Source: Acidimicrobiaceae bacterium (GTDB lineage: Bacteria; Actinomycetota; Acidimicrobiia; Acidimicrobiales; JAUTXP01). Taken from it: DNA of 47,874 nt. Made by a program: the position numbers and the translations under genes. This document shows, piece by piece, positions 6,564 to 44,196 of this stretch. The notes beneath the pieces were generated by a model, which had not been told where the DNA came from, did not search any database, and saw only the letters and a list, made by a program, of their open reading frames with translations. The stretch spans positions 1 through 47,874 of the forward strand of contig JAUTXP010000048.1 in NCBI GenBank assembly GCA_030837965.1, in the 5' to 3' direction. Within the stretch, counting starts at the first letter, position 1. Each line of letters begins with the position of its first letter.

Positions 6564-6974
6564 GTGGCCAAGTACCCCTTCCTCAGCGAGGAGTGGATGG
6601 CGGAGGCGCGCAAGATTCGTGAGGAGTACCGCGGCAAGACGCAGGCGCCCGCCCACCAGGTGCGCATGAACCAGATCATCACCGACGTGCCCTTCGGCGA
6701 CGGGAACATCGAGGCCCACATGGACACCACCGGCGGCGACCTCGAGACCGAGTTGGGCCACTTGGAGAACGCCGACGTGACCCTCACGCTGGACTACGCC
6801 ACGGCCAAGGCCATCTTCGTGGACGGCAATCCCCAGGCCGGGATGCAGGCCTTCATGGCAGGCAAGATCAAGGTCCAGGGCGACATGACCAAGCTCATGG
6901 CCATGCAGCAGACCAGTCCGGACCCGGCCGCGGCCGAGATCCAGCAGCGCATCAAGGACATCACCGAGGAATAG
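6564..6974 (+). CDS. SCP2 sterol-binding-domain protein
   Basis: 136 residues from GTG (VAKYPFLSEEWMAEARKIRE...), preceded by a good AAGGAG site 6 nt upstream. The middle and C-terminal parts fit the SCP2 fold, with alternating strands (ETELGHLENADVTLTLDYATAKAIF) followed by GNPQAGMQAFMAGKIKVQGDMTKLM, the characteristic SCP2 helix with the KVQGD motif. Such proteins bind acyl-CoAs or other lipids in the cytoplasm; the ligand here is unknown. It converges on the MFS gene with only 7 bp between the stops. Confidence 0.88.
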   Translation: MAKYPFLSEEWMAEARKIREEYRGKTQAPAHQVRMNQIITDVPFGDGNIEAHMDTTGGDLETELGHLENADVTLTLDYATAKAIFVDGNPQAGMQAFMAGKIKVQGDMTKLMAMQQTSPDPAAAEIQQRIKDITEE

Positions 6975-6981
6975 GACTCGG

Positions 6982-8514
6982 TCACGCCGCCGCCACCGGC
7001 GCGGCGGCGCGCTCGAACGCGTCGCGGTCGGCCGACCGGACCCACACCGCGCAGACGAGGGCCAACGCGCACACGGCGCCGCCCAGGAGATAGGCCTCGT
7101 GAAAGGCCGCCACTGTCCCGACGCTTGGCTCGCGCGCGGCCTGCACCGTCTGCATGAGCTGGATGCCCGCGACCAGACCCACCTGGGTCAGCAGTTGTTG
7201 GGCCGCGCTGGCGATCCCCAAGTCGGCCTCGTCCACCGCGTTGCCCACACTGGCCGCCACCGACGGCGACGAGATGCCGAGTCCCACCCCGGACAGGACC
7301 AGCGCGCTGATCAGCACGAGGTCGCTCGAGCGGGCGTCGATGGTGGCGAACACGCCCATCGACGCGATGACGCCCAGGGTCCCGACGATGGCCGCGGACC
7401 GCTCGCCCAGTCGCACCGCGAGGTAGCCCGCGATGGGCGCGGTCACCGAGAAGGCCAGCGGCCGGGCGATCACCAGCAGGCCGATGCGGGTCTCGTCGTA
7501 GTGGAAGACCTTGTCGAGCAGCAGCGGGGCCAGGATGAAGCCGCCCATGTAGGCGAACTGGGAGAAGGCCGACTGGCCGATGGGGGCGGCGAAGTTCCGT
7601 CGACGCAGATAGGCCAGCGGCAGCAGTGGGTGCGGGGCCCGGGCCTCGATGCGCAGGAAGGCGACGAGGGCCACGGGCGCCAGGGCGAAGGCGGCGACCA
7701 CGATCGGGTGGCTCCATCCCCACTCGGGCCCGCGGTTGAGGGCCATGAGGACGCTGGTCACCGAGACGGTGAGGGCCACGGCGCCCGCCCAGTCGAGCCG
7801 CTGGCGCTCGCCCTTCACCGTCTCGGGCAGAACGAGCACGGCCAGCACGGTGGCCACGGCGATGAGCGGGACCTGGGTGACGAAGATCCAACGCCAGCCG
7901 AAGTGCTGGATGATGGGACCGCCGATGGCCACGCCGATGACGGGCCCGCCCGCCCCGACCAACGACCAGAAGCCCATGGCCTTGACCCGGTCGCCCGGCT
8001 CGAACACCGAGAAGATGAGGGCCATCGAGGCCGCGCCAGTCGCCGCCCCCTCCATGCCGCCCAAGGTGCGGACGGCGATGAGGGAGCCCGCGCTCCACGC
8101 CGCCGCGCTGCCCGCCGCGCACACGCATGCGCCCAGCAGGCCGATCACGTAGATCCGGCGGTGGCCCCAGATGTCGCCCGCCTTGCCCAGCACCGGCGCG
8201 GTCACGCCGAACAACAGGAGAGGGCCGGTGATGACCCACGTCATGGTGTTCGTGCTGGTGTGCATGTCCCGGCCGATGCGGGGCAGGGCCACGGCCAGGA
8301 TGGTGAAGGTGACGTTCACGGCCAGGAGGCCGAACAGCACGGCCCACAGGACCCACCACCGATAGCGCGGCCCGGTGCTGACCCGGTGGGCCACGCTGCG
8401 TCGCAGCAGGAGGGGCCAGGGGACGACGGCCACCTCGTCGCTGCCCGCCCCGCCCAAGGTCGGGTCCTCCGAGATGGGGCCGGGCGGCGGTTGCTCGGGC
8501 GGTTGCTCGGGCAT
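6982..8514 (-). CDS. MFS drug-type exporter, DHA2/EmrB-QacA family
   Basis: 510 residues from ATG 8514. A TTG immediately before it would add one residue. About 40 hydrophilic N-terminal residues are followed by many hydrophobic helices, with a count near 14 as in the EmrB/QacA group. The family motif GKAGDIWGHRRIYVIGLL (motif A, D and R conserved) and GPVIGVAIGGPIIQ-like motif C (here GAGGPVIGVAIGGPI) point to a proton-driven exporter. The N-terminus contains a duplicated MPEQPPEQPP segment made by a 12-bp tandem DNA repeat. The substrate cannot be read from sequence. Confidence 0.9.
   Translation of the reverse strand: MPEQPPEQPPPGPISEDPTLGGAGSDEVAVVPWPLLLRRSVAHRVSTGPRYRWWVLWAVLFGLLAVNVTFTILAVALPRIGRDMHTSTNTMTWVITGPLLLFGVTAPVLGKAGDIWGHRRIYVIGLLGACVCAAGSAAAWSAGSLIAVRTLGGMEGAATGAASMALIFSVFEPGDRVKAMGFWSLVGAGGPVIGVAIGGPIIQHFGWRWIFVTQVPLIAVATVLAVLVLPETVKGERQRLDWAGAVALTVSVTSVLMALNRGPEWGWSHPIVVAAFALAPVALVAFLRIEARAPHPLLPLAYLRRRNFAAPIGQSAFSQFAYMGGFILAPLLLDKVFHYDETRIGLLVIARPLAFSVTAPIAGYLAVRLGERSAAIVGTLGVIASMGVFATIDARSSDLVLISALVLSGVGLGISSPSVAASVGNAVDEADLGIASAAQQLLTQVGLVAGIQLMQTVQAAREPSVGTVAAFHEAYLLGGAVCALALVCAVWVRSADRDAFERAAAPVAAA
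8489..8512 (-). repeat. 12-bp tandem duplication at the start of the MFS gene
   Basis: GGTTGCTCGGGC occurs twice in perfect tandem at 8489-8500 and 8501-8512. The second copy ends inside the start codon on the minus strand. It encodes a repeated PEQP unit. Confidence 0.9.
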
Positions 8515-8585
8515 CAACGGTCGAGCCTAGAAGGCGCCTGCCGGCTCCTTGACGGGATTGTCAGCCCGACCTGTGGCGGGGCGCG

Positions 8586-8666
8586 CAACAGGGCTGAGGG
8601 GGGTGGCGGCACCGGCAGCGGCTGGGGAACACTGCCTCAGCAACGCCACCCCCCTCAGCCCTGTTG
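8586..8666. repeat. 23-bp perfect inverted repeat with 35-nt loop
   Basis: The arms are 8586-8608 and 8644-8666 and are perfectly complementary; each contains GGGCTGAGGGGGGTGG or its complement. It lies 72 nt upstream of the MFS start and 100 nt beyond the 31-bp palindrome that follows the carotenoid oxygenase gene. The whole gap 8515-8822 has no credible coding sequence. The stretch 8667-8769 is less GC-rich than its surroundings and contains nothing else I recognise. A strong hairpin or terminator is likely, and a remnant of a small element is possible. Confidence 0.85.
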
Positions 8667-8769
8667 GGGCAAATCATACGGAAGGTCGATTACGGAAACC
8701 ATGCTCATTCGGGCGATGACCCAAACGCACTAGCCCCCGCTGGTCACCCAAGGTACACGCCCCGTCGAT

Positions 8770-8800
8770 CTTTTCCACAGCAGCAGGTGCTGTGGAAAAG
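8770..8800. repeat. 31-bp palindrome, copy 1 of 7 (paired TTTTCCACA)
   Basis: Two 13-nt arms (CTTTTCCACAGCA and TGCTGTGGAAAAG) flank the loop GCAGG. The element starts 22 nt past the carotenoid-oxygenase stop on the minus strand. Each arm contains TTTTCCACA. It would form a strong hairpin, and could end that transcript or bind a protein. Confidence 0.92.
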
Positions 8801-8822: not shown

Positions 8823-10178
8823 TCAGGCCGGGTCGGGGACCCAGTTGCCGTGGAAGCCGAACGGGACCCGCTGAGGCAGGGAGACGGTTGCCACCGGGGC
8901 GGCGGCGAAGTCGGTGGCGTCGAGCACGGCCAGGCTGCTGGACCCGGTTGCGTCGTCGTACACGACAGAGAGCACCCAGCCCTCGTCCTCCCCCGCGTTG
9001 TCCGATGCGGGCACGAACACTCCCTCGCTGGCCGACAGGCCCGGGCCGAAGTCGTGGATCTGGCTGGTGCCTGCGACCAGGTCGTGCTTGACCAGCCCGC
9101 CCAGGGCCACGCCGTTGTCGTCGGTGCCGAAGTAGGTGCCATAGCCGTAGCGGTGGCGGCGGCCCGCCAGCCGGTCGTCGATGCGGGGGAACTCCTGCGG
9201 GTGATCGGACACCCGCTCCTCGAGCACCTTGCGGGCGTTGAGGTCGATGGTCCAACGGTCCAACGTGGGCTGGCCGCCTGAAGGGCCGTTCTTGTCCGAG
9301 GCGAACATGCTCTGGTGGCGGACCACGTCGACCACCACCCGGTCGCCGTCGTCGTAGGCGTTGAGGGGATGGAACACGTAGCAGGGCTCCACGTCCACCC
9401 ACTGCACGTCGGCGTTGCCGCCGGTGCGGGGCATGACGCCGACACGGGCCCCGTACGTGTCGGGCTTCCAGCCGAAGGGGAACATGCCGCTCGCCACCAG
9501 GTCCATGTCGAACACGACCGGCAGGTCGAAGAACACGACGTGGTCCTTGGTGATGGCGAAGTCGTGGATCATGGCCGGCCCGGGGATGTCGATGGCCTCG
9601 CTGCGGACCAGCGCGCCGGACGCGTCGGCCACGTGGAAGCGCAGGTAGGGCGGGCCGAAGATGTCGTAGCCGAAGAAGAGCAGCTCCCCCGTCTCGGGGT
9701 CGACCTTGGGATGGGCGGTCATGGCCGATCGCAGGGCGCCGTTGTAGTCCCAGCGGCCCAGCGTGTTGAGGTCGCCGTCCACCTCCATGGGCAGGGCGTT
9801 CTCGACCAGGGCGAAGATGCGTCCGGCGTGGGGCACGACGTGGGTGTTGGACACGGCGCTGCCCATGGGCCAGGTCTCGTCGGCCCCGCCCACCCGCGGC
9901 TCGCCCAAGGCGTCGCAGGCCTGATCGGTGCGGACCCAGCGGTTGCGGTATGACACGGCCTGCCCGTCGCGCAGGTGTACGGCGTGGAGCATCCCGTCGC
10001 CCGTGAACCAGTGGTAGGTGGCCGGGTCCTGCTCGGCGATGGGGTTGGGCCCGATGCGCAGGAGGCGGCCGTTCAACTCGGGCGGGAGGCTGCCTGTGAC
10101 GGGCAGGTCGACGGCGTCGACCTCCTCCTTCACCGGCCCGAAGTTGCCCACCAGATAACGGTTCTCGGTGATGGTCAC
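8823..10178 (-). CDS. Carotenoid cleavage oxygenase family protein
   Basis: 451 residues from GTG, with a strong GAGGGGGAGAG ribosome site just upstream. Members are non-haem Fe(II) dioxygenases that cleave carotenoids, stilbenes or related alkenes. The four iron-binding histidines can be placed at His156 (TAHPKVD), His205 (MIHDFAIT), His270 (YVFHPLNAYD) and His443 (GFHGNWVPDP). The N-terminal LNGRLLRIGPNP and HWFTGDGMLHAV segments are also typical. All ligands are intact, so it should be active; the substrate is unknown. No carotenoid-synthesis genes are nearby. A GTTAAC-type palindrome 20 nt upstream suggests control by a repressor encoded elsewhere. Confidence 0.93.
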   Translation of the reverse strand: MTITENRYLVGNFGPVKEEVDAVDLPVTGSLPPELNGRLLRIGPNPIAEQDPATYHWFTGDGMLHAVHLRDGQAVSYRNRWVRTDQACDALGEPRVGGADETWPMGSAVSNTHVVPHAGRIFALVENALPMEVDGDLNTLGRWDYNGALRSAMTAHPKVDPETGELLFFGYDIFGPPYLRFHVADASGALVRSEAIDIPGPAMIHDFAITKDHVVFFDLPVVFDMDLVASGMFPFGWKPDTYGARVGVMPRTGGNADVQWVDVEPCYVFHPLNAYDDGDRVVVDVVRHQSMFASDKNGPSGGQPTLDRWTIDLNARKVLEERVSDHPQEFPRIDDRLAGRRHRYGYGTYFGTDDNGVALGGLVKHDLVAGTSQIHDFGPGLSASEGVFVPASDNAGEDEGWVLSVVYDDATGSSSLAVLDATDFAAAPVATVSLPQRVPFGFHGNWVPDPA

Positions 10179-10282: not shown

Positions 10283-10313
10283 CTTTTCCACAGCACCTGC
10301 TGCTGTGGAAAAG
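10283..10313. repeat. 31-bp palindrome, copy 2 of 7 (inverted loop)
   Basis: The arms are the same as in the copy at 8770, but the loop reads CCTGC on the plus strand. It lies 18 nt past the SDR stop on the minus strand and about 100 nt upstream of the carotenoid-oxygenase start. Confidence 0.92.
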
Positions 10314-23731: not shown

Positions 23732-23762
23732 CTTTTCCACAGCAGCAGGTGCTGTGGAAAAG
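23732..23762. repeat. 31-bp palindrome, copy 3 of 7, between convergent galT and GH57
   Basis: Same arms and GCAGG loop as the copy at 8770. It lies 16 nt past the galT stop and 10 nt past the GH57 stop, so one element serves both 3' ends. Confidence 0.92.
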
Positions 23763-26155: not shown

Positions 26156-26192
26156 CATCTTTTCCACAGCAGCAGGTGCTGTGGAAAAGATG
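26156..26192. repeat. 31-bp palindrome, copy 4 of 7 (arms extended to 16 bp)
   Basis: The core 26159-26189 is identical to copy 1. Three more complementary bases on each side (CAT/ATG) extend the stem. It lies 16 nt past the glgB stop on the minus strand and about 30 nt upstream of the GH57 start. Confidence 0.92.
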
Positions 26193-26205: not shown

Positions 26206-28422
26206 TCAGGCGGGGATGAGCCAGAGGACGCCGAGCGGGGGCAGCGTCACCTCGGCCGAGGCGGGCAGGCCGTGCCACGTCTCGTCCACCGCCCACACGC
26301 TCCCGCCATTGCCCACGCCGCCGCCGCCGAACTCGACCGCGTCGGTGTTGAGCGCTTCACGCCACTCGCCCCCCACCGGCAGGCCGAACCGGTACCCGTG
26401 TCTGGGCACGGGCGACAGGTTGGCGATGCACACCAACGGCGGCGACTCCGCGTCGAGCGGCTTGCGCAGGAACGACAACACGTTGCCGTCTACGTCCGAC
26501 GCGTCGATCCAGCGGAACCCCTCCGGCGCGAAGTCCTGCTGCCACAGGGCGGGCGTCTCCTTGTAGAGCCCGTTCAAGCAGCGTACCAACGACTGCACGC
26601 CGCGGTGGCCGTCCCACTGGAGCACGTGCCAGTCCAGCGACCGGTCGTGGCTCCACTCCCGCTCCTGCGCGATCTCGCCGCCCATGAACAAGAGCTGCTT
26701 GCCGGGGTGGGCCCACATCCACGCGTAGAGGGCGCGCAGGTTGGCGAGCTGCTGCCAGCGGTCGCCCGGCATCTTGTTGAGCAGCGAGCCCTTGCCGTGC
26801 ACCACCTCGTAGTGCGAGAGGGGCAGCTCGAAGTTCTCGGTGAACGCGTACAGCAGGCCGAAGGTCAGCTCGTTGTGGTGGTAGCGCCGGTAGACGGGCT
26901 CTTTGGAGAAGTAGTCCAACGTGTCGTGCATCCAGCCCATGTTCCACTTGAACCCGAAGCCGAGCCCGCCCAAGTAGGTGGGCCGCGACACCGCGGGCCA
27001 CGCCGTCGACTCCTCGGCGATGGTCATGGCGCCCGGATGCTCGCCGTACACCACCTCGTTCATCTCCTTGAGGAAGGAGACGGCTTCGAGGTTCTCCCGT
27101 CCGCCGAACTCGTTGGGGATCCACTCGCCCGCCTTGCGGGAGTAGTCGAGGTACAGCATCGACGCCACCGCATCGACCCGCAGGCCGTCGATGTGGAACT
27201 CCTCCAGCCAGAACAGGGCGTTGGAGATCAAGAAGTTGCGGACCTCGTTGCGCCCGAAATTGAACACGAGCGTGCCCCAGTCCGGATGGGCGCCCTTGCG
27301 CGGGTCCTCGTGCTCGTACAGCGCGGTGCCGTCGAAGCGGGCCAAGGCCCAGTCGTCGCGGGGGAAGTGCGCGGGCACCCAGTCGACGATCACGCCGATG
27401 CCCCGCTGGTGCAGCGCGTCGACCAAGGCCCGGAAGTCGTCGGGAGTGCCGAAGCGCGAGGTGGGCGCGAAGTACGACGACACCTGATAGCCCCACGAGC
27501 CGCCGAACGGATGCTCGGCCACCGGCATCAACTCCACGTGGGTGAAGCCCATGTCCTCGCAGTAGGCGGGCAGCTCCTGGGCCAACTCCCGATAGGTGAG
27601 CGAGCGCTCGTCCTCCTCGGGCCGACGCCGCCACGATCCAAGGTGGACCTCGTAAACGGACACCGGCTTGGTGAGATGGGCAGCCGCGCCCCCCGCGTCC
27701 CGCTCAGCGAGCCACTGGCCGTCCTGCCACTGGTGGGTGGACTGGGCCACCACGCTGGCCGTCCCCGGCGGCTCCTCGGCCGCGAAGGCCACGGGGTCGG
27801 CCTTGAGGGTCACCGCGCCTGCGCCGGTGAGGATCTCGAACTTGTACCTGGCCCCGGGCATGACGCCGGGGACGAACAGCTCCCAGATGCCGGACGAGCC
27901 CAACGAGCGCATGGGGTTGACCCGCCCGTCCCACAAGTTGAAGTCGCCCACCACCCGCACCGACCGGGCCGAAGGGGCCCACACCGCGAAGCTCGTGCCC
28001 ACCACGCCCTGGTGCTCGCGGTGATGGGCGCCCAACGCCTGCCACAGCCGACGGTGACTGCCCTCGCCCAAGAGGTACAGGTCGACCTCGCCCAACGTGG
28101 GCCAGAACCGGTAGGGGTCCTCCAAGGTGACGATCGTCCCGTCCTCGTACGTCGCTTCGAGCGTGTAGGCCGTCGTGCCCTCGGGCACCTCGGCGGCGAA
28201 CACGCCGTCGCGCACGCGCTCCATGTCGCACGGCTTGCCGTCGTCCAGGATGACGCGCATGGCGACGGCGTCAGGACGGTAGGCGCGCACGACGTCGCCG
28301 TGCAGGCCCAAGACGGTGTGGGGGTTGGCGTGCTCGCCGGATACGAGGCGAACCACCTCGGTGGCCAGCGGGTCGTTCTTGGGCGTGGGGTTCTTGGGCG
28401 CGGGAGTCCGCCGAGTCGGCAT
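26206..28422 (-). CDS. glgB: 1,4-alpha-glucan branching enzyme (GH13)
   Basis: 738 residues, typical for actinobacterial GlgB. It moves alpha-1,4 glucan segments to alpha-1,6 branch points in glycogen. An N-terminal CBM48-like part (VRVVGDFNLWDGRVNPMRS) precedes the barrel. The catalytic residues are Asp in GLRVDAVASMLYLDYSR, Glu in IAEESTAWP, and the HD pair in REWSHDRSLDW; VELMPVAEHPFGGSWGYQ is also diagnostic. Residues 7-16 (PAPKNPTPKN) come from a 15-bp tandem duplication. In many actinobacteria glgB follows treS-maltokinase directly; here an eight-kilobase redox operon lies between them. Confidence 0.96.
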   Translation of the reverse strand: MPTRRTPAPKNPTPKNDPLATEVVRLVSGEHANPHTVLGLHGDVVRAYRPDAVAMRVILDDGKPCDMERVRDGVFAAEVPEGTTAYTLEATYEDGTIVTLEDPYRFWPTLGEVDLYLLGEGSHRRLWQALGAHHREHQGVVGTSFAVWAPSARSVRVVGDFNLWDGRVNPMRSLGSSGIWELFVPGVMPGARYKFEILTGAGAVTLKADPVAFAAEEPPGTASVVAQSTHQWQDGQWLAERDAGGAAAHLTKPVSVYEVHLGSWRRRPEEDERSLTYRELAQELPAYCEDMGFTHVELMPVAEHPFGGSWGYQVSSYFAPTSRFGTPDDFRALVDALHQRGIGVIVDWVPAHFPRDDWALARFDGTALYEHEDPRKGAHPDWGTLVFNFGRNEVRNFLISNALFWLEEFHIDGLRVDAVASMLYLDYSRKAGEWIPNEFGGRENLEAVSFLKEMNEVVYGEHPGAMTIAEESTAWPAVSRPTYLGGLGFGFKWNMGWMHDTLDYFSKEPVYRRYHHNELTFGLLYAFTENFELPLSHYEVVHGKGSLLNKMPGDRWQQLANLRALYAWMWAHPGKQLLFMGGEIAQEREWSHDRSLDWHVLQWDGHRGVQSLVRCLNGLYKETPALWQQDFAPEGFRWIDASDVDGNVLSFLRKPLDAESPPLVCIANLSPVPRHGYRFGLPVGGEWREALNTDAVEFGGGGVGNGGSVWAVDETWHGLPASAEVTLPPLGVLWLIPA
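28375..28404 (-). repeat. 15-bp tandem duplication at the start of glgB
   Basis: GTTCTTGGGCGTGGG (28375-28389) is followed by GTTCTTGGGCGCGGG (28390-28404), one mismatch. It is in frame and lies 15 nt inside the glgB start codon. Confidence 0.88.
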
Positions 28423-28482: not shown

Positions 28483-30387
28483 TCACACGACGACCAGGGT
28501 GCCCTTCATGCCCGGGTGCAGCGAGCAGTAGAACGGGTACTGGCCCGGCTTGAGGGCGCTCACGCCGTAGACGGGCGACGTGCCGCTCAAGCCGATCAGC
28601 GGGGTCCAGAAAGCCGGGCACTTGCCGGGCTCCGCGCCCTCGCACCACCGGTTGGTATCGGGTCCGTAGACGCCGTAGGCCTGCACGTCGTGAGCAGTGG
28701 CGTCGGCGTTCACATACGTGACCGACCCGCCCTGCTGCACGACCATGGCGGGCGTGGCGTAGTTGGTGATGAACGCGCCGGGGCCGGACAAGATGACCGG
28801 ATTGACAGCCGGCGTACCACCACCGCCGCCACCGCCACCGCCACCGCCTCCCGGCGGCGTGGGCAGGTCCGGCACGGCCACGGGAAGGGCTTGGGGCCGG
28901 AAGGCGCTCAGCGCGCCGCCCGCGGGCGCATACACCGAGTTGCGGGCCACGCTCACGCCCGCGCCCAGGCTGGCATTGGCGGTGGACGAGTCGATGGGCG
29001 AGTGCAGCAGCAGGGCCCCCGTCTTCGCGTCATAGCCATTGAGGAAGCCGGCCGCGTCGGTCGTGTACGCGACGCCGTTGGCCACAGAGACTTGATGGCC
29101 CCAGTGGGCGCCGTCCGCCGTCGGCGAGGCCCAGCGAGGCCCGCCGCGACCGTCGATCGACCACAGGTAGCCCCCGGTGGTGACCGGGCCGACGAGCGAG
29201 GCGCCGTCCCATGCCGCGGTGCCGACGATGCCGCCGATCGCGGTGGGGGCGCCCACCACCGACTTCCACGCAGGCGCCATGGTCGTGGCGTCGACCGCGT
29301 GGTACACGCCAGACTTCTGGCCGTCGCCCACCAGCTTCTTGCCGTCGACGGTGAAGATGTTGGGCGAGGCGCCGAAGTCCATGTCGGAGTCGAAGCAGCT
29401 TCCGCCGCCCTGCGGATACCAGGGGGCGGGGTTGCCGGGGATGTCGACGCACGGGGCCGAGCTGAACTCGGTGAAGTACTCGTCCACGTTGCCTTGGTAG
29501 TGGCCCACGATGCGGCCGAAGGTCGCCGTCCTGGTCTTGTCCAAGTCGATCTTCAAGATGGCGTCGGTCTTGGTGTCCTGGTTGGCCGGGTTGAACGGGT
29601 TGCCGGTGCCCACGTAGGCGTAGCCGGTCTCTGTGTCCACTGCCGCGGTCGACCAGATGGCCCCGCCCGCCAGGTCGTCGGCGGGAAGGTTGGGCGGGTG
29701 CACCGTGTACTGCTTGCGCACCACCGCGCCCGTCGCCGCGTCGAGCAGTACGTAGCCGCCTTGGAAGGCGTACCGCTCAGCTTCGTTGGAGCCCAGCTCG
29801 GCCGCGCCGCCTGACCAGCCGGCCAGCACCACGCCGCCGAACACGACGGGGCTGGCGTAGGCGTCGGCGCCGGGCTGCGTGTCGAGCACGCGGGTCCACG
29901 AGACCGCGCCGGTGGCCTCGTCCAGCGCGAACGCGCCGGGCGCGCCGGTGCGGGAGGTGAGGCCGTACACCTTGCCGCCCACGACGGTGAGGCTGGCGTT
30001 GACGCCGCCCAACGTGATCTGGCGCGACCACACGACCTCGCCGGTGTCGGCGTTGAGGGCGTGGACCCACCCGCCGTCCGTACCGGTGAATACGCAGCCG
30101 TCGGCCACGACGGGCGTGCCGGTGATGCCGCCCGAGCCACCCGCGGCTGCGGACTGGAACGTCCACGCGGGCTTCAGCGTGGGGGCCTGCTGCACGCCGA
30201 TGACGTGCTCGTCGGGCTGGCTTCGCGTGTTGGCCAGGTCGTGGCCGAAGCTGGGCCAGTCGCCGCCCACGTGCTGCGCAGGGGCGCAAGACGCCGCCGC
30301 GTGGGCGGGCTGGAGGGCGAGGGCGGGAACGAGTGCGGACACCACGGCCGCGCCCATGAGCGCGGCCGATCGGGTGCGTCGGAACAT
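28483..30387 (-). CDS. Secreted PQQ-type beta-propeller with C-terminal cupredoxin domain
   Basis: 634 residues. The signal peptide MFRRTRSAALMGAAVVSALV ends near AHA/AAS. Residues about 40-510 are a PQQ/BamB-like propeller starting DWPSFGHDLANTRSQ, with blades such as VFTGTDGGWVHALNADTGEVVW; this resembles polyvinyl-alcohol-dehydrogenase-type proteins. A run of 12 glycines then links to a cupredoxin (about 525-634), with His in TAHDVQ and the copper set YCSLHPGMKG. An extracytoplasmic quinoprotein dehydrogenase passing electrons to its own copper site is the simplest reading, but PQQ binding is not proven. It is last in a six-gene operon, 13 bp after the small cupredoxin gene, with AGGAGG-like CGGAGG upstream. 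Confidence 0.82.
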   Translation of the reverse strand: MFRRTRSAALMGAAVVSALVPALALQPAHAAASCAPAQHVGGDWPSFGHDLANTRSQPDEHVIGVQQAPTLKPAWTFQSAAAGGSGGITGTPVVADGCVFTGTDGGWVHALNADTGEVVWSRQITLGGVNASLTVVGGKVYGLTSRTGAPGAFALDEATGAVSWTRVLDTQPGADAYASPVVFGGVVLAGWSGGAAELGSNEAERYAFQGGYVLLDAATGAVVRKQYTVHPPNLPADDLAGGAIWSTAAVDTETGYAYVGTGNPFNPANQDTKTDAILKIDLDKTRTATFGRIVGHYQGNVDEYFTEFSSAPCVDIPGNPAPWYPQGGGSCFDSDMDFGASPNIFTVDGKKLVGDGQKSGVYHAVDATTMAPAWKSVVGAPTAIGGIVGTAAWDGASLVGPVTTGGYLWSIDGRGGPRWASPTADGAHWGHQVSVANGVAYTTDAAGFLNGYDAKTGALLLHSPIDSSTANASLGAGVSVARNSVYAPAGGALSAFRPQALPVAVPDLPTPPGGGGGGGGGGGGTPAVNPVILSGPGAFITNYATPAMVVQQGGSVTYVNADATAHDVQAYGVYGPDTNRWCEGAEPGKCPAFWTPLIGLSGTSPVYGVSALKPGQYPFYCSLHPGMKGTLVVV

Positions 30388-30400
30388 CAGGCCTCCGAGG

Positions 30401-30805
30401 TCAGGCAGGCTCCACGACGAGTTGGCCTCGCATGAGGTTGGTGTGCAGCCTGCACATGAACGGATACGTGCCGGGCTTCAACTTGTCCACGCCGCCGACT
30501 TGGGCCATGTCGCCCGTTCCCACTTCGTACGGCGTGTCGAACAGGTAGACGCCAAAGGAGACCTCGGGGCCCGTCAACGTGTGGGGCGCCGATGGGTCGA
30601 CGTTGGCGAGGAACAGCTTGCCGCCTTGCGAGACATGCACGATGGCAGTGGTGGACACTGGAACTGAACCCGTTGTGTCGCCGGGGATGTAGCGGTACTG
30701 CTCAACCGCGACCACAGCCGCCGGCGGCGCCGTGGCCCTGGCCGGCGATCCTCCGAAGAGAACCGCGGTCAGGGCCACGGCAACCGCCAATCGCCGTGCG
30801 GCCAT
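30401..30805 (-). CDS. Small secreted cupredoxin (type 1 copper protein)
   Basis: 134 residues. The signal peptide MAARRLAVAVALTAVLFGGS ends near ARA/TAP. The remainder is one cupredoxin domain: VVAVEQYRYIPGD, then His in SAPHTLTG and the C-terminal ligand loop FMCRLHTNLMRGQLVVE (Cys, His, Met). It is expected to carry single electrons outside the membrane. Its start overlaps the preceding stop by one base (TGATG), so it is coupled to the secreted unknown. The ligand loop is very like those at the C-termini of the two multidomain proteins of the same operon. Confidence 0.87.
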   Translation of the reverse strand: MAARRLAVAVALTAVLFGGSPARATAPPAAVVAVEQYRYIPGDTTGSVPVSTTAIVHVSQGGKLFLANVDPSAPHTLTGPEVSFGVYLFDTPYEVGTGDMAQVGGVDKLKPGTYPFMCRLHTNLMRGQLVVEPA

Positions 30806-31365
30806 CAGAACACGGCCACCGTCGGGAACGTTGCCGTTCCGCCATCTGCGTTAGGACACGCCGAGGCGGTCTCGATCCCGAAGTCGATGGTCATGACGCT
30901 GCCCGCATCAGGGGCCTTGTCGAGCGGGATCACCAAGGTGCCCCCGTCGTTGGCCATCTGGCCGCGCAGGGCGGCCGACCCGATGTAGGTGTCCACACCC
31001 TTGACCAGGCCGCGCACGTTGGCCTTGAGCCACGTGAACGGGGTGATGGTCGCCTTGTCGTAGGCCACCGCCACCTTGGTCACCGGGGACGTCACCTTGT
31101 GCAGGACCCGCAGGTAGCCGAAGCCGCCCGTGGCTGCGCACCCGATGGCGCCCGGCGTGGTGTTGGCCCACAGCACGGTGACCGTGCCGGTGGACGGGTC
31201 GACATTGCGGTACGCGGTCCGGTTCGGCTTGGCCTCGGTGTCACCGCCCGTCGGTCCTGCTTGATACGAGTCGGGCTGGTAGGTGGTGCCGCTGCCTGCC
31301 CTGGCCCCGGGCGAGCCCAGGACCAGGCCGACGGCAACGGCGCTGAGGATGATGATTCGCTTCAT
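30805..31365 (-). CDS. Secreted hypothetical protein of the redox operon
   Basis: 186 residues from ATG 31365. MKRIIILSAVAVGLVLGSPG with ARA/GSG is a Sec signal. The mature part appears to be a beta-sandwich (RTAYRNVDPSTGTVTVLWANTT, GYLRVLHKVTSPVTKVAVAYDKATITP, DGGTLVIPLDKAPDAGSVMTIDFG), with two Cys (GAIGCAATGG and SACPNADG) that may be disulfide-linked. There is no copper or haem motif, and I do not recognise the family. Its placement between the amidohydrolase and the small cupredoxin, with a TGATG junction to the latter, ties it to the operon's function. Confidence 0.8.
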   Translation of the reverse strand: MKRIIILSAVAVGLVLGSPGARAGSGTTYQPDSYQAGPTGGDTEAKPNRTAYRNVDPSTGTVTVLWANTTPGAIGCAATGGFGYLRVLHKVTSPVTKVAVAYDKATITPFTWLKANVRGLVKGVDTYIGSAALRGQMANDGGTLVIPLDKAPDAGSVMTIDFGIETASACPNADGGTATFPTVAVF

Positions 31366-31397
31366 TTTCTGTTTCGGCTCCTTGAGATCCCGTGCGC

Positions 31398-33197
31398 TTA
31401 CGGCGACCACGGCGCGGCAGCGCGGTGGGCGATCAGCTCCTGTGCCGTGCGCGGGCCGAGCAGGGTGTTGCTCGACGCCGGAGCGGCATTCTTCGGAGTG
31501 GCCTGGTTGACGATGTACTGGTCCCGCAGCTTCTGGACGTCGTCGCAGTTGAGCTTGTGGAACGCAGCGTCGGGGTCGACCTCGTAGGCAATGGCGGCGT
31601 TGCGGCCGAAGATGCCGTTGCGGATGGTCCGCTCGGGGTGGGCCTTGCCGTCGGTGGGCCAGCCGGGCACAGCCGGATGGGCCGAGAGGTACGAGCTGCC
31701 CGATAGGGCGTTCTTGGTCGGGTCGTCGACATCGCCGTCCAAGCCGTACGGCAGCTTGTAGAGGGCCTTGGCCTGATCGCTCATCTGGAAGGTCCGCAGA
31801 GCGACGATCTCCGACTGAGGCGAGCCGAACCACAGGCTGTCAGTGCCCCACGCGATGCGCTTGGGACCCATGTGGGTGATCAGCTTGCCCAGCAGGTGGG
31901 CGGCCTGGCTCGGGTCGTTCATGACGCTGCGCCACGTGGAGCCGATCTCGGCCCACACGTTGGGGACGTTGCCGAACTTCAAGCCGGGCTTGATGAAGCG
32001 GCTGGCGTCCCAGCGGTTCTCCCGCAGGCTCTTGACGAAGGCGTTGACCGACCGGTCGGCCGAGTTGACGTTGTCGTCGCCCGGGTACGGGCCCTCGGTC
32101 TGGCTGTCGTAGCCCGAGTGGTACACGATGAACCGCACGCCGGGGTACTGGCGGGCGGCCGGGCCGATGTCACGGGGCGAGGCGGCCCGCTGGTCGAACG
32201 CAGGCAGGGCGAAGCCCTTGTGCGTGGCGATCACCGGGGGCACGCCGTACTTCTGGCTGACCCGCTGCACCTGCTCGCAGAACGCCAGGCCCAGGTCGTC
32301 GTCGAAGTACCAACCGCTGGCGTAGGGCACGTCGCCCCATGCCGGGTAGGTCTTCCAGCCCACGAGCATGTCGTGGTACTTGACCGCGTTCTCCTCCATG
32401 GCGTCGAACTCGGCCTGCTGGAACACCGGGGCCCGACCAAGGGTGGTCGAGGTGGTGCCCACCGAGCCGCGGTTCGGCATGACGAAGGCGTGCATCACGC
32501 AGCGGCGCGACTTGGCCAGGTCGTTGACCGTGCGGACGGTCAGCGCGGCCCGCTCGAGGGGCAGCGGCTGGTTGTCGGGGTCCGAGGGGACGGCCGACAG
32601 CACGCACATGGTCGTCGAGCTGTCGAGGTACAGCTCCTTCATGTAGTGGAACCGCGACAGGTTCTCGATGGGGTCGATCTCACCCGCACCGAAGCCCCGA
32701 ACGCTGTTGTCGGAGCGCACGCCGGGAACGCCGCCGAGCGGGCCTGACTGGCTCCAAACACCGGTGAAGAAGCCCTCCATCACCGGGTTGGTGACGCGCC
32801 ACGTGCCGTCCGACTCGACGTGGTGGGACTGCACGTCGAAGATGAACTCACCGGGCATGTTGCCGAGCTGCGCCTCGGGGAACTCCAGGTCGCACGCGGC
32901 CGTGGTGGCCGAGTGGGCGCCTGCCTTGTAGCTGCCGAAGGTCAGGTCGCGGACCTGGTTGATGGCGGCCAGGCCGATGGCGTAGGCCGCGGCCGTGCGC
33001 ACGAACTGGCGACGGGGCATGCCGAACTTGCGGGCCATGTCGTTCGTGGCGTCGTCGGCCACGCCCATGATGAGCTTCTCCTCGCGGCTTGCAGGCCGCG
33101 GGATGAACTCACCGTTGGAACACGGCAGCACGTCGATCGGCAGGGCCTCGTTGAGGTTTTCGTTGTCGGACAGATTCCCCGGCACGTGTCTCTCCAT
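31398..33197 (-). CDS. Tat-exported amidohydrolase-2-family metal-dependent hydrolase
   Basis: 599 residues. A Tat motif, MPRRQFVRTAAAYAIGLAAI, sits unusually deep at residues 60-80, after a soluble stretch containing LPIDVLPCSNGEFIPRP. The hydrolase core follows: FDVQSHHV in the place of the usual HxH, then His in IATHKGF and VYHSGYDS, and Asp in AWGTDSLWFG, which fits the ACMSD/amidohydrolase-2 metal site. The reaction may be hydrolysis or decarboxylation of a ring or carboxylate; the substrate is unknown. Internal starts at residues 44 or 60 would give a conventional Tat leader. It lies between the cytochrome gene (25 bp) and the secreted unknown (32 bp). Confidence 0.8.
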   Translation of the reverse strand: MERHVPGNLSDNENLNEALPIDVLPCSNGEFIPRPASREEKLIMGVADDATNDMARKFGMPRRQFVRTAAAYAIGLAAINQVRDLTFGSYKAGAHSATTAACDLEFPEAQLGNMPGEFIFDVQSHHVESDGTWRVTNPVMEGFFTGVWSQSGPLGGVPGVRSDNSVRGFGAGEIDPIENLSRFHYMKELYLDSSTTMCVLSAVPSDPDNQPLPLERAALTVRTVNDLAKSRRCVMHAFVMPNRGSVGTTSTTLGRAPVFQQAEFDAMEENAVKYHDMLVGWKTYPAWGDVPYASGWYFDDDLGLAFCEQVQRVSQKYGVPPVIATHKGFALPAFDQRAASPRDIGPAARQYPGVRFIVYHSGYDSQTEGPYPGDDNVNSADRSVNAFVKSLRENRWDASRFIKPGLKFGNVPNVWAEIGSTWRSVMNDPSQAAHLLGKLITHMGPKRIAWGTDSLWFGSPQSEIVALRTFQMSDQAKALYKLPYGLDGDVDDPTKNALSGSSYLSAHPAVPGWPTDGKAHPERTIRNGIFGRNAAIAYEVDPDAAFHKLNCDDVQKLRDQYIVNQATPKNAAPASSNTLLGPRTAQELIAHRAAAPWSP

Positions 33198-33222
33198 TTC
33201 GTTGTTCAGACAGGACGTCGCA

Positions 33223-34236
33223 TCACAGCGACATGAGGTACTCGATGAGCGCCTGCTCCTCAGCGGGCGTGAAGTTCATTTGGAAGCGTTCGTTGTAGAA
33301 GCCGACGGTTTCGAGCAGGGCTGGACGCGGCGGCGAGTTGACCGGCGACCGCATGGCCGTCGGGTCGCCGCCCAGCCCTTCGTGGAAGTACGGGGCGGTC
33401 AGGCGCAACGCCCGCAGGACCGGGGTCTTGAAGCCCTTGATGCTGCCGTCGTCGCCCATGGCGCCGGGGTCGAGGACGGGATCCCCGAACGGCATGAGGA
33501 TCTTGTGGAAGGAGCGGTCGGTCTTCTTGTCGCCGGTGTGGCAGGAGGCGCAGGCGACCTTGACGTCGGCTGCGAACTCGCCGCTCGGGTCCATGCCGCG
33601 CGGCTCTTCGAAGATGTGCTTGCCCTGTTCGGCCAGCACCGGGTCGAAGTCCACGCCGGCGACGGCGTCGGGGGCGTCGAGCGTCTCCACGAAGGCGGCC
33701 AACGCGTCGAGCTCGTGGGCCGTCGGCTCACGGGAGCCGTTCATCTCCAAGGGCGACGTGATGGCCCCTCGGATCTGCTTCTGGAGCGTGGGGTTGCGGC
33801 CGTCCCATGCGAACGGGGCCGTGTCCTTGATCCGCAGCAGGTGCGGGGTCTGACGGGCGACCGCGGGGCGAGAGCCGGTGGGCCCCACCACATGGGTGCG
33901 GTTGTCCGTGAAGGCCGGGCCCGCATGACAGGTCTGGCATGACACCTTCAGGCCTGCGATGGTCGGTCCCTGGCTGGGCTGCTGGCCGAAGGCGTCCACG
34001 CTGTTGAACAGCTCCTTGCCCTCGGCCACCAGCGCGGCCTGCTCGGCGGGGGTGGGGGTCGCGGTCGTGGTGCTGCCCCGCTTGGCCTTGGCCCCGGCAC
34101 CGCCCCCAGTGCCGGACTCCGAAACGGGACCGCCCGCGGCCCGGCTGGCCCGGGCCCCAGCGAGCAGGGCGACGGCCGCGAGGATGAGCACGGGTAGTGC
34201 CCTCCCCACGAACCGACCGCCGCGTGCCTGCTCCAC
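33223..34236 (-). CDS. Di-haem cytochrome c, MauG / cytochrome-c-peroxidase family
   Basis: 337 residues from GTG 34236. The signal peptide covers residues 1-33 (ALPVLILAAVALLAGARA). Two haem c motifs are Cys100-Cys103-His104 (CQTCHAG) and Cys229-Cys232-His233 (CASCHTG). TDNRTHVVGPTG, DTAPFAWDGRNPTLQKQIRGAI, KTPVLRALRLTAPYFHEG and the closing ALIEYLMSL are hallmarks of the bacterial CCP/MauG family. It acts outside the membrane as a peroxidase, an electron-transfer protein or a cofactor-maturing oxidase. Second gene of the operon, 30 bp after the PHM-like gene. Confidence 0.92.
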   Translation of the reverse strand: MEQARGGRFVGRALPVLILAAVALLAGARASRAAGGPVSESGTGGGAGAKAKRGSTTTATPTPAEQAALVAEGKELFNSVDAFGQQPSQGPTIAGLKVSCQTCHAGPAFTDNRTHVVGPTGSRPAVARQTPHLLRIKDTAPFAWDGRNPTLQKQIRGAITSPLEMNGSREPTAHELDALAAFVETLDAPDAVAGVDFDPVLAEQGKHIFEEPRGMDPSGEFAADVKVACASCHTGDKKTDRSFHKILMPFGDPVLDPGAMGDDGSIKGFKTPVLRALRLTAPYFHEGLGGDPTAMRSPVNSPPRPALLETVGFYNERFQMNFTPAEEQALIEYLMSL

Positions 34237-34266
34237 CGCTGACCCCAGCTTCCTTTTCCCTGACGC

Positions 34267-36057
34267 CTAAGGCGCCGTGACTTCGAACGCACCCCGCATG
34301 AAGGGGTGGATCCGGCAGTAGTACGTGTACCGCTGGCCGGGCTGGAACCCGTTGCCGTCGGTGACGGGCAGGTCGAAGTTCAGCTTGTTGGCCGCCGGTC
34401 CGAAGATCGGCGGGCCGTAGCCCAGCTCGGCCGAGTCGAAGTCGACCCGGCGGTCGTTGGCCAGCGGGAACGACGTCCCCGTCGCCCCCTTGCAGGGGAA
34501 GCCGCACGACGTGACCGTGTGGTACACGTCGATGGCCGTGTCCTCGTTGTTGAAGGTCAGCGTCGACCCCAGCGGGACAGTGGGCACACCGGCGATGTCG
34601 ATGGTCGTGAGGTCGCCAGGCGTGTAGAGGAACCCGGCGATGTCGACCCGAGTGGTGGCCTGGCCCTTCATGGCGGCCAGGGTCGTCGAGCCGTCAGGCC
34701 CACCGAAGTTGCCCGCCTCGGCCATGTGGCCGTGGGTCACCACGCCGAACTCGCACAGCGCCTTTTTGGGCAGGCAGTCCGAGTTGGGAGCGGCCGGGTT
34801 GCTGTTGAACGTGGTCGCAGGGTCGAACACGTCCAGGCCCTGGGCCGTCGGCGTGCCGTCGACCTTGTCGGGGGCCACGTAGGCGATGGCGATGCCCATG
34901 TTCTCGTACGTCGACTGATGCGTCGTGTCGTACGTGGCGTTCATGAGGATCTGGTCGCCCGGCTTCACCCGCACGCCCCAGCGGGGCAGGCCGGTGGTGG
35001 TCATCGACAGGTCCCACGACGTGGGCGGTCCGCCGACCTTGGTGTTGTCCTTTCGGTCCCAGTACTCGGCCGTCGAGGTGAAGATGCGCTTGCTCGCGCC
35101 CGCTCGGGTCTGGTCGATGTCGACCGAGATGCCGCCCGGGTGGAGGTGGCCGCCGACACCGATCAGCGTGCCGCCCTGGAAGTTCGGGATCTGCCCGAGG
35201 GAGGTGCCCGCCGCGGGGAAGCGGTAGGGCGTGCCTGCGGACTGGGCGACTACGCCGTTGTTGCGGCTCTTGCCGCCCCACGGGTCGAAGTCGGCGCAGT
35301 ACTCCTTGGGCCACGTGCACTTGCCGTCAGTGCCGCCGTACTTCTGCTGCACGTTGAACACCGGGTAGCCGCTCTTGCTGCTGTCGGCCGCGCCCACGTC
35401 CAGCCAGATCGGATAAGCGGGCTGGAGGTTCCACTTGGGCACCGCGGCCTGGGGCACGAAGTCGATGTCGTACGTGATGTAGACCTCGAAGGGCTGGGCC
35501 GTGGCGTTGTGCACCATGTAGAGGAGCTGCCACTGGTCGGCCGCCTTGATGGGCATGCCGTAGCCCTTGGGGATGTCCCCGATGGTCTTCTCCTCGCCGG
35601 AGGCGAAGAAGGGGCCGGAGCCGTAGGTGCCGCCCGCGAGCTGGAGCCACGTGCCGTGATGGAGGTGGACCTGCTCGATGGGGGGCACGGTGCCGTCGAC
35701 CTTCACCAGGTCGGGCCGCATCCGGACCATGTAGCCGTCGTAGGCCGGCTTCTCAATGGTCACGGGCTGGAGCAGCACGTCGTTCTGGCCTGGCTTCACG
35801 TTGATGGGACCGAACGCGAAATGCAGGCGCTGGCAGTCCGACCCGTACCGGGTGAACCCGTCGGTCGCCTTCCAGCCCTCTCCGCCGTACTGCGCCTCTT
35901 CGAACTTGTTGCCGGGCTCCGCTTGACACGCCGACTTGGTGATCGTCGTGGCGAAGTTGGCCTCGGGCGTCGGTAGTCCGGCCTTCGCCGCACTGGTGCC
36001 AGCGGCGATGAGGGCTACCAGCCCTCCGGCCGCCAACAGCCGTCGTCCTCGATTCAT
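34267..36057 (-). CDS. Secreted PHM-like copper monooxygenase with C-terminal cupredoxin
   Basis: 596 residues from ATG 36057, preceded by AGGAGG. The signal peptide is MNRGRRLLAAGGLVALIAAG. Residues about 70-400 carry a pattern like the copper type II monooxygenases (PHM/DBM): HLHH at 131-134, HLH at 304-306 in GVGGHLHPGG, and Met387 in YDTTHQSTYENMG, matching the CuH and CuM ligand order. Further His lie in VTHGHMAEAGN. The last ~100 residues are a cupredoxin, with His in VYHTVTSC and YYCRIHPFMRG. It may hydroxylate an external substrate and draw electrons through its own copper domain. First gene of the six-gene operon. The PHM assignment is by motif only. Confidence 0.75.
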   Translation of the reverse strand: MNRGRRLLAAGGLVALIAAGTSAAKAGLPTPEANFATTITKSACQAEPGNKFEEAQYGGEGWKATDGFTRYGSDCQRLHFAFGPINVKPGQNDVLLQPVTIEKPAYDGYMVRMRPDLVKVDGTVPPIEQVHLHHGTWLQLAGGTYGSGPFFASGEEKTIGDIPKGYGMPIKAADQWQLLYMVHNATAQPFEVYITYDIDFVPQAAVPKWNLQPAYPIWLDVGAADSSKSGYPVFNVQQKYGGTDGKCTWPKEYCADFDPWGGKSRNNGVVAQSAGTPYRFPAAGTSLGQIPNFQGGTLIGVGGHLHPGGISVDIDQTRAGASKRIFTSTAEYWDRKDNTKVGGPPTSWDLSMTTTGLPRWGVRVKPGDQILMNATYDTTHQSTYENMGIAIAYVAPDKVDGTPTAQGLDVFDPATTFNSNPAAPNSDCLPKKALCEFGVVTHGHMAEAGNFGGPDGSTTLAAMKGQATTRVDIAGFLYTPGDLTTIDIAGVPTVPLGSTLTFNNEDTAIDVYHTVTSCGFPCKGATGTSFPLANDRRVDFDSAELGYGPPIFGPAANKLNFDLPVTDGNGFQPGQRYTYYCRIHPFMRGAFEVTAP

Positions 36058-36078
36058 CCTGCCTCCTAGGCGCATTGA

Positions 36079-36107
36079 CCAATAGGGCGTCCGAATGGAC
36101 GCGCCAA
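36079..36107 (-). promoter_or_regulatory. Candidate promoter of the redox operon with an inverted repeat in its spacer
   Basis: On the minus strand TTGGCG (36107-36102) and TATTGG (36084-36079) are 17 bp apart. GCGTCC-ATTC-GGACGC (36102-36087) fills most of the spacer. The ATG at 36057 and its AGGAGG lie downstream. Both hexamers are imperfect, so confidence is moderate. Confidence 0.4.
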
Positions 36108-36302
36108 GGGGGTGGGCGTCAGGCACGCGCGAAGGTCGTCGATCATCAACGGCTTCCGCCTTGTTGCCATCGTGCAGCTCCCCCAACTGACTGCATCGCC
36201 GTGTGCTGCTGCTGCGTCCAACGGGCGTGATGAAGTGGCGACGGTGGTACGTGGTTCCCGGGCATCGTTTACATGCCGCGTGCAATGACTTCTCCCGGTT
36301 TG

Positions 36303-36329
36303 TTCGAACTCCTTCTCGACCGGTTCGAA
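36303..36329. promoter_or_regulatory. Paired TTCGAA sites upstream of the redox operon
   Basis: TTCGAA occurs at 36303-36308 and 36324-36329, 21 bp apart (two helical turns), in the 334-bp gap between the operon start (36057) and the palindrome at 36392. Otherwise the gap 36108-36391 shows no gene or RNA I can recognise. Confidence 0.3.
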
Positions 36330-36391
36330 ATCTGAACGCTGTTGGCGTGTGCCACGCCTGGCCCAGCCCCACCCGCGCCCCCCACCCCGCG

Positions 36392-36422
36392 CTTTTCCAC
36401 AGCAGCAGGTGCTGTGGAAAAG
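36392..36422. repeat. 31-bp palindrome, copy 5 of 7, after maltokinase
   Basis: Same arms and GCAGG loop as copy 1. It begins 3 nt past the maltokinase stop on the minus strand, the closest of the seven. Confidence 0.92.
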
Positions 36423-42019: not shown

Positions 42020-42050
42020 CTTTTCCACAGCACCTGCTGCTGTGGAAACG
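42020..42050. repeat. 31-bp palindrome, copy 6 of 7 (inverted loop, one diverged end)
   Basis: The loop reads CCTGC on the plus strand. The right arm ends GGAAACG instead of GGAAAAG, but flanking CGCG/CGCG restores outer pairing. It sits between the convergent stops of glgP (15 nt away) and the enoyl-CoA hydratase gene (35 nt away). Confidence 0.9.
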
Positions 42051-44165: not shown

Positions 44166-44196
44166 CTTTTCCACAGCAGCAGGTGCTGTGGAAAAG
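44166..44196. repeat. 31-bp palindrome, copy 7 of 7, after murA
   Basis: Identical to copy 1. It lies 35 nt past the murA stop and 45 nt upstream of the NifU-like start, both on the minus strand. Confidence 0.92.

What the first reader, a model, noticed from the sequence alone, without database searches (positions are those of the whole stretch)
28483..36057. Six-gene operon for an undescribed extracytoplasmic copper/haem/quinoprotein oxidation pathway
Six tightly spaced minus-strand genes (gaps 30, 25, 32, -1 and 13 bp) encode only exported proteins: a PHM-like copper monooxygenase with cupredoxin, a di-haem MauG/CCP-type cytochrome, a Tat amidohydrolase, a secreted unknown, a cupredoxin, and a PQQ-type propeller with cupredoxin. 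Three separate cupredoxin modules share a C-x-(L/I)-H-x(2-4)-M-(R/K)-G ligand loop. A coherent reading is oxidation of an external substrate (hydroxylation, dehydrogenation, then hydrolysis) with electrons passing through copper sites to the cytochrome. I know no described pathway with this combination.
Basis: partly seen in the sequence, partly recalled or inferred. Interest (0 to 1): 0.78.

Follow-up and report, generated by a model that had tools for sequence, protein, structure and literature searches.

The report
Exported copper-enzyme and quinoprotein gene cluster
An actinobacterium carries, side by side, genes for exported copper, quinone-type and hydrolase-like proteins; four of them travel together in other soil bacteria and two are even fused in one, which suggests an undescribed oxidation system in which a dehydrogenase may feed electrons to a copper oxygenase outside the cell.

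Summary
In detail: six minus-strand genes with gaps 30, 25, 32, -1 and 13 bp, export-type N-termini and the shared cupredoxin loop. The conserved unit is smaller: PHM-like enzyme, Tat amidohydrolase, small beta-sandwich protein and propeller-cupredoxin recur in this order in L020, L021, L023 and L094, with pieces or rearrangements elsewhere. The two oxidoreductases are fused in one ORF in L015, and a second copy of the pair lies elsewhere in the same genome. The di-haem MauG-like gene is private to this locus: absent from 8 other cluster genomes and 247 of its order. The model of gene 1 has the PHM/DBH fold (Z 17) plus a cupredoxin (Z 10.5); PHM-type copper ligands are invariant in 54 proteins. 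pqqC/pqqE are missing from all carriers tested, so PQQ must be scavenged or the propeller is empty. Best reading, not shown: the quinoprotein passes electrons through cupredoxins to the copper monooxygenase, replacing ascorbate, much as fungal AA12 drives LPMO. Substrate unknown. New variant of a known kind.

The parts
34267..36057 (-). g1: exported PHM/DBH-like two-copper monooxygenase (residues about 35-422) with C-terminal cupredoxin (468-594). Candidate CuH ligands H133, H134, H183 (H131 also invariant); CuM ligands H304, H306, M387; type-1 Cu ligands H513, C581, H584, M587
   Evidence: AlphaFold model pLDDT 83.9; best structural matches PHM/DBH, Z 17.1 and 16.8; cupredoxin Z 10.5; ligands invariant in 53-54 of 54 proteins; no Pfam family for the window protein
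33223..34236 (-). g2: exported di-haem MauG/CCP-type cytochrome, two CxxCH (100, 229); private to this locus, not part of the conserved core
   Evidence: PF03150 2.7e-16; below equivalog cut-offs of MauG and MbnH; absent from 8 cluster genomes and 247 genomes of the order
31398..33197 (-). g3: Tat-exported Amidohydro_2-like protein; metal-site residues Q123 (in place of the first His), H125, H326, H360, D453
   Evidence: PF04909 31.3 bits, cut-off 26.4; RRQF at 62; residues invariant in 8 close relatives, DVQxH/DVHTH comparison with distant ones
30805..31365 (-). g4: small exported beta-sandwich (jelly-roll) protein, carbohydrate-binding-module-like fold; seen only in this kind of cluster
   Evidence: AlphaFold pLDDT 82; VIA Z 9-10.8 to CBM-type domains, Foldseek TM only about 0.4; 2 of 396 genomes of the phylum, both cluster carriers
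30401..30805 (-). g5: exported single-domain cupredoxin
   Evidence: PF13473 1.2e-6; loop CRLHTNLMRG; a similar stand-alone cupredoxin lies at L047 14380-14769
28483..30387 (-). g6: exported PQQ-dehydrogenase-type propeller (about 33-500) with C-terminal cupredoxin; conserved E197, W245, N263, D335, D337, K358; vicinal Cys pair and the 'NRG' Arg are missing
   Evidence: PF13360, PF01011; TIGR03075 below cut-off; profile match to PQQ-ADHs, hhalign E 7e-33; residue counts; alignment with annotated PQQ-ADHs
36058..36391 (-). upstream region of g1, where a promoter of the cluster would have to lie
   Evidence: bounded by palindrome 36392-36422; no sigma-70 consensus found
36392..36422 (.). 31-bp palindrome CTTTTCCACAGCA-GCAGG-TGCTGTGGAAAAG, 3 bp past the end of the maltokinase-like ORF; probable boundary between the upstream genes and g1
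26206..28422 (-). neighbour, not a member: glgB-like gene 60 bp downstream of g6, possibly on the same transcript; the next palindrome (26159-26189) lies beyond its end
   Evidence: product named by eye, not by a family search

Best explanation
The conserved core (g1, g3, g4, g6, with g5 as an accessory) is an exported oxidation module. g1 is a two-copper monooxygenase of the PHM/DBH superfamily that hydroxylates a C-H bond with O2. g6 is a quinoprotein-type dehydrogenase that oxidises a small alcohol or sugar with scavenged PQQ (or another quinone) and passes electrons one at a time through the cupredoxin domains of g6, g5 and g1 to CuH and CuM, taking the place of ascorbate. g4 holds the module on a polymer or glycan surface, and g3 hydrolyses or decarboxylates the oxidised product. 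The di-haem protein g2 is a local addition, perhaps an H2O2 scavenger or protein-modifying enzyme. Shown: gene content, synteny, predicted fold and copper ligands of g1, the g1-g6 fusion, absence of g2 elsewhere and of pqqC/pqqE. Inferred: catalysis, direction of electron flow, roles of g3 and g4, substrate.
For: The g1 model has the PHM/DBH fold at Z about 17 and an extra cupredoxin; HH, H, HxH, M ligand order and type-1 Cu ligands are invariant or nearly so. A g6-type protein lies next to g1 in 8 of the 9 genomes of the g1 clade; 15 of 16 g6-type matches in ten genomes sit at g1 loci or at a contig break of one. In L015 both are one 1405-aa ORF with a Pro-rich linker and no inner signal peptide, giving PHM-cupredoxin-propeller-cupredoxin. 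In L010/L018 the partner is instead a cupredoxin fused to an NHL propeller, so the cupredoxin is kept while the propeller changes. CopC/CopD-type genes flank the Frankiaceae clusters L021 and L094, fitting copper supply. W, N, D and K positions of the PQQ/metal site are conserved in the g6 family. Precedent for the logic: fungal PQQ pyranose dehydrogenase AA12 drives copper LPMOs through its cytochrome domain (PMC5960967).
Against: No pqqC or pqqE over cut-off in any carrier tested. g6 lacks the vicinal cysteines and the 'NRG' arginine of classical enzymes, scores far below the PQQ-ADH cut-off (68 of 480 bits), and also matches the 'empty quinoprotein' model TIGR04528 below its cut-off. No partner interface or electron transfer was modelled. 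The short-form g1 family in Solirubrobacterales and Acidimicrobiia carries the cupredoxin but has no g6 neighbour, so a quinoprotein is not needed by all relatives. No substrate evidence.
Confidence: 0.4

Rival explanations
1. One reading: g1, g6 and g3 act one after the other on the same external substrate (hydroxylate, dehydrogenate, hydrolyse), and electrons released by g6 leave through cupredoxins to a cytochrome.
For: Gene content and order are conserved; enzyme classes would fit in that order.
Against: The cytochrome g2 is private to this locus, and the scheme leaves open what reduces the copper monooxygenase. No CxxCH-bearing gene lies within the conserved part of the other clusters.
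Confidence: 0.22
2. PAM-like scheme: the propeller is not a quinoprotein but a binding or lyase domain that acts on the hydroxylated product, as the NHL propeller PAL does after PHM in peptidylglycine alpha-amidating monooxygenase.
For: No PQQ synthesis genes; weak TIGR04528 'empty quinoprotein' match; an NHL-type propeller takes g6's place in L010/L018; PHM-propeller fusion in L015.
Against: The propeller belongs to the PQQ-ADH superfamily, not NHL; several PQQ/metal-site positions are conserved without exception; cupredoxins are kept, which a lyase does not need.
Confidence: 0.17
3. Copper handling rather than substrate oxidation: exported copper proteins that bind or sense copper, with g2 acting as an MbnH/MauG-like modifier of a tryptophan in a partner protein, as in the MbnH-MbnP and MopE/CorA systems (systems recalled from general knowledge).
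For: Three cupredoxins, CopC/CopD next to two of the clusters, g2 in the MauG/CCP superfamily. The window g4 has Trp at positions where most homologues, whose genomes lack g2, do not.
Against: A full PHM-type set of ligands is invariant; g3 and the propeller have no role in it; g2 is absent elsewhere; the MbnH cut-off is not reached.
Confidence: 0.12
4. The neighbourhood is a chance meeting of exported redox genes without a common role.
For: The window version has two extra genes (g2, g5) and sits inside glycogen/maltose-type genes.
Against: Order g1-g3-g4-g6 in four further loci and parts of it in more, within a supported g1 clade; fusion in L015; g4 found only in such clusters.
Confidence: 0.05

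Closest known systems
Peptidylglycine alpha-hydroxylating monooxygenase (PHM) and dopamine beta-hydroxylase
   Same: Predicted fold (Z 17), order of copper ligands HH...H...HxH...M
   Different: 10-15% identity; own cupredoxin domain; Pfam PF01082/PF03712 do not detect it; bacterial, reductant and substrate unknown
SURNod19 family (PF07712)
   Same: 7 of 50 proteins of the g1 family match weakly, best E 1e-4
   Different: The window protein itself does not match; the papers found are on plant proteins
PQQ-dependent alcohol dehydrogenases (MxaF/XoxF/ExaA) and quinohaemoprotein ADHs
   Same: Propeller superfamily; W245, N263, K358 and a Glu and an Asp pair at corresponding places
   Different: C-terminal cupredoxin instead of cytochrome; no vicinal disulfide, no NRG arginine; no PQQ synthesis genes found in the genome
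Fungal AA12 pyranose dehydrogenase driving AA9 LPMO (PMC5960967)
   Same: Exported quinoprotein with an electron-transfer domain and a carbohydrate-binding module that feeds a copper monooxygenase (likeness of working, not of descent)
   Different: Cytochrome b domain rather than cupredoxin; LPMO rather than PHM fold
MauG, MbnH and bacterial di-haem peroxidases
   Same: g2: CCP_MauG domain and two CxxCH
   Different: Below the MauG and MbnH equivalog cut-offs; not near their known partners
Methylamine dehydrogenase-amicyanin (quinoprotein to cupredoxin electron transfer)
   Same: Quinoprotein-type protein paired with an amicyanin-like cupredoxin; the g6 C-terminus matches the amicyanin profile, below cut-off
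   Different: Cupredoxin fused to the propeller; different kind of quinoprotein and cofactor

Membership tests
PHM/DBH copper monooxygenases | Two-domain PHM core fold | tested here: met
   VIA Z 17.1 (245 residues, rmsd 3.5) to 6ala; Foldseek top ranks all PHM/DBH; on a predicted model
PHM/DBH copper monooxygenases | CuH (3 His) and CuM (HxH, Met) ligands | tested here: met
   H133, H134, H183, H304, H306, M387 invariant in 54 of 54; mapped by order and spacing, not by measured geometry
PHM/DBH copper monooxygenases | Recognised by PF01082/PF03712 | tested here: not met
   No hit for the window protein; 1 of 50 family members at E 0.024 for PF03712. Filed as PHM-like, not as a PHM
PHM/DBH copper monooxygenases | O2-dependent hydroxylation with ascorbate or another reductant | not testable with these tools
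   needs protein
SURNod19 (PF07712) | Pfam model match | tested here: inconclusive
   Window protein no match at E 1; 7 of 50 family members match weakly
PQQ-dependent dehydrogenase, methanol/ethanol family (TIGR03075) | Score above the curated cut-off | tested here: not met
   67.9 bits, cut-off 480
PQQ-dependent dehydrogenase superfamily | Propeller homologous to PQQ-ADH | tested here: met
   PF01011/PF13360 in 13 of 13 members; hhalign E 7e-33
PQQ-dependent dehydrogenase superfamily | PQQ/metal residues | tested here: inconclusive
   W, N, K, Asp conserved, Glu in a shifted register; NRG Arg and CC missing; hhalign did not confirm the Asp register
PQQ-dependent dehydrogenase superfamily | PQQ biosynthesis in the genome | tested here: not met
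   No pqqE or pqqC over cut-off in G000 and 7 carriers; not strictly required, as PQQ can be taken up
MauG / MbnH | Equivalog cut-off | tested here: not met
   62.5 of 444 bits and 33 of 363 bits
Di-haem CCP_MauG superfamily (PF03150) | Domain and two CxxCH | tested here: met
   61 bits, cut-off 25.6; CxxCH at 100 and 229
Amidohydro_2 (PF04909) | Score over gathering threshold | tested here: met
   31.3 bits, cut-off 26.4
Amidohydro_2 (PF04909) | Canonical HxH metal motif | tested here: not met
   QxH in all eight close relatives; HxH at the same columns in L111 only. Other ligands H326, H360, D453 kept, so activity is open
Type-1 copper cupredoxins | His, Cys, His, Met ligands in g1, g5, g6 | tested here: met
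   Ligand loop in all three, columns in g1 and g6; fold tested for g1 only

The most novel reading that the evidence does not exclude
A prokaryotic PHM-superfamily monooxygenase that is driven by its own quinoprotein dehydrogenase through built-in cupredoxins, in some species as a single self-sufficient polypeptide, possibly with a lanthanide-type DxD metal site in the dehydrogenase, acting on a soil polymer or glycan.
Probability: 0.2. Interest if true: 0.8.

Novelty: new variant of a known kind. Interest (0 to 1): 0.5.

Why it matters
PHM and DBH were worked out in animals, where ascorbate supplies the electrons. A bacterial branch that carries its own cupredoxin and travels with, or is fused to, a quinoprotein would show another way to power this chemistry and give a genetically simple system to study the long-debated electron transfer between the two copper sites. 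It would also add an exported oxidation route in uncultured soil Actinobacteria.

Tried and rejected
Conserved six-gene unit: rejected, g2 is private and a stand-alone gene best matching g5 was seen beside only one other cluster (L047); other stand-alone cupredoxins (L011, L013, L047) match the C-terminus of g6. Cytochrome as universal acceptor: rejected for the same reason. Sequence profile of g1 against PDB found only cupredoxins; the fold search was needed. Sequence profiles of g3 and g4 against PDB: no match. ResB-type cytochrome maturation: not found, but two Cytochrom_C_asm proteins are present, so haem attachment is possible. Neighbour families of the short-form g1: no consistent partner. 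Lanthanide reading of D335/D337: MAFFT aligns D335 with the catalytic Asp and D337 with the extra Asp of REE enzymes (signature in PMC11845868), but hhalign loses the register there, so it is kept only as a lead. Literature searches for the combination returned nothing relevant.
Full report
What is there. The window is a whole 47,874-bp contig (C55) of an unnamed 3.55-Mb genome, 97.9% complete, whose relatives place it in the Actinomycetota. G+C does not differ from the surroundings. The genes lie between a maltokinase-like ORF upstream and a glgB-like gene 60 bp downstream (these two named by eye). A 31-bp palindrome sits 3 bp beyond the end of the maltokinase-like ORF (36392-36422) and the next one beyond the end of glgB, so the likely unit is g1 to g6 and perhaps glgB (inference). 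No sigma-70 consensus promoter was found, which says little for such an organism.

What is conserved. A profile of g1 found 80 loci in species genomes. Annotation of their surroundings gives the order g1-g3-g4-g6 in L020, L021, L023 and L094; g1-g3 followed by the start of g6 at a contig end in L017; g6-type, cupredoxin, g1, g3 and g4 genes in a rearranged order in L047; g3-g6 in L108, where the contig begins inside g3; and g1 fused to g6 in L015. The same genome has a second g1 (48% identical) divergent to two g6-type genes and a cupredoxin (L011). In the g1 tree the cluster-linked proteins form a clade of ten rows (support 100/99), nine with g3 and/or g6 neighbours; the tenth, L018, has a cupredoxin fused to an NHL propeller instead. 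One further linked row, the divergent L047 gene at 6908-8743, falls outside on a long branch. The wider short-form family in Solirubrobacterales and Acidimicrobiia lacks these neighbours. g6-type proteins in ten genomes lie at g1 loci in 15 of 16 matches, if the two pieces in G059 contig C20 are counted as one and a contig-break fragment in G060 is counted with its g1 locus. g4 was found in 2 of 396 genomes of the phylum, both carriers (by contig coordinates the second is most likely the L047 genome). g2 was found in none of 8 other carriers and none of 247 other genomes of the order.

What the proteins are. g1: AlphaFold model with pLDDT 83.9; PHM and DBH are the top structural matches, Z about 17, and residues 468-594 match cupredoxins, Z about 10.5. 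The residues expected for CuH, CuM and type-1 copper are invariant or nearly so in 54 proteins. Pfam sees SURNod19 weakly in 7 of 50 family members and Cu2_monoox_C in one. g4: confident jelly-roll model, best matches carbohydrate-binding modules at Z 9-10.8 but TM about 0.4, so a fold resemblance only. g3: Amidohydro_2 with a Tat signal; the first metal His is Gln, the other ligands are kept. g6: PQQ-ADH-type propeller by Pfam, PDB profile and profile-profile comparison with W245, N263, D335, D337 and K358 invariant and a Glu in the right loop, but without the vicinal cysteines and NRG arginine. g2: CCP_MauG superfamily, two haem motifs.

How it may work. PHM needs two electrons per turnover; in animals they come from ascorbate (established knowledge of the family). 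Here g1 carries its own cupredoxin and goes with a propeller-cupredoxin protein, to the point of fusion. The simplest reading is that g6 is the electron source. A described parallel in logic is the fungal AA12 quinoprotein that drives LPMOs (PMC5960967). The weak point is the cofactor: pqqC and pqqE are not found in any of the eight genomes tested, so the enzyme would depend on PQQ from other soil microbes or use none. The PAM-like alternative, in which the propeller handles the hydroxylated product, is therefore kept as a rival, helped by the NHL propeller in L018. CopC and CopD beside the Frankiaceae clusters fit copper supply. Substrate, order of steps and role of g3 are not shown by anything here.

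Verdict. A real conserved cluster, not described as far as the searched library shows, around a bacterial branch of the PHM superfamily.

Noticed in passing
window 8770-8800, 10283-10313, 23732-23762, 26159-26189, 36392-36422, 42020-42050, 44166-44196: A 31-bp palindrome CTTTTCCACAGCA-N5-TGCTGTGGAAAAG occurs seven times between genes here (one copy with a mismatch) and 176 times in the genome, with none for the reversed control pattern. Copies tend to lie just past gene ends; a terminator, processing signal or REP-like element is possible.
   Followed up: partly
L011 9063-15470 (G000 contig C45): Second, divergently arranged PHM-like and quinoprotein locus in the same genome, with two propeller genes and a separate cupredoxin but no amidohydrolase or MauG-like gene.
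   Followed up: partly
L015 9434-13651: Single 1405-aa ORF joining PHM-like, cupredoxin, propeller and second cupredoxin (Chloroflexi-labelled MAG).
   Followed up: partly
L010 3696-5102 (same as L018): Cupredoxin fused to an NHL-repeat propeller directly downstream of g1, in place of the PQQ-type propeller; recalls the PHM-PAL pair of PAM.
   Followed up: partly
window 28483-30387, residues D335 and D337 of g6: D-x-D in all 13 family members, aligned by MAFFT with the extra Asp of lanthanide-dependent alcohol dehydrogenases; register not confirmed by hhalign.
   Followed up: partly
L020 12452-14807: Tat-signal protein and GMC oxidoreductase downstream of the cluster, possibly a further redox partner.
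   Followed up: no
L109, L110, L111, L115: Distant relatives of g3 with the same N-terminal 'NGE' region stand without the other cluster genes; the one in a Sphingobium baderi plasmid lies among CoA-dependent degradation genes.
   Followed up: partly
window 8823-10178: ORF that looks by eye like a carotenoid cleavage oxygenase; no family search was run.
   Followed up: no
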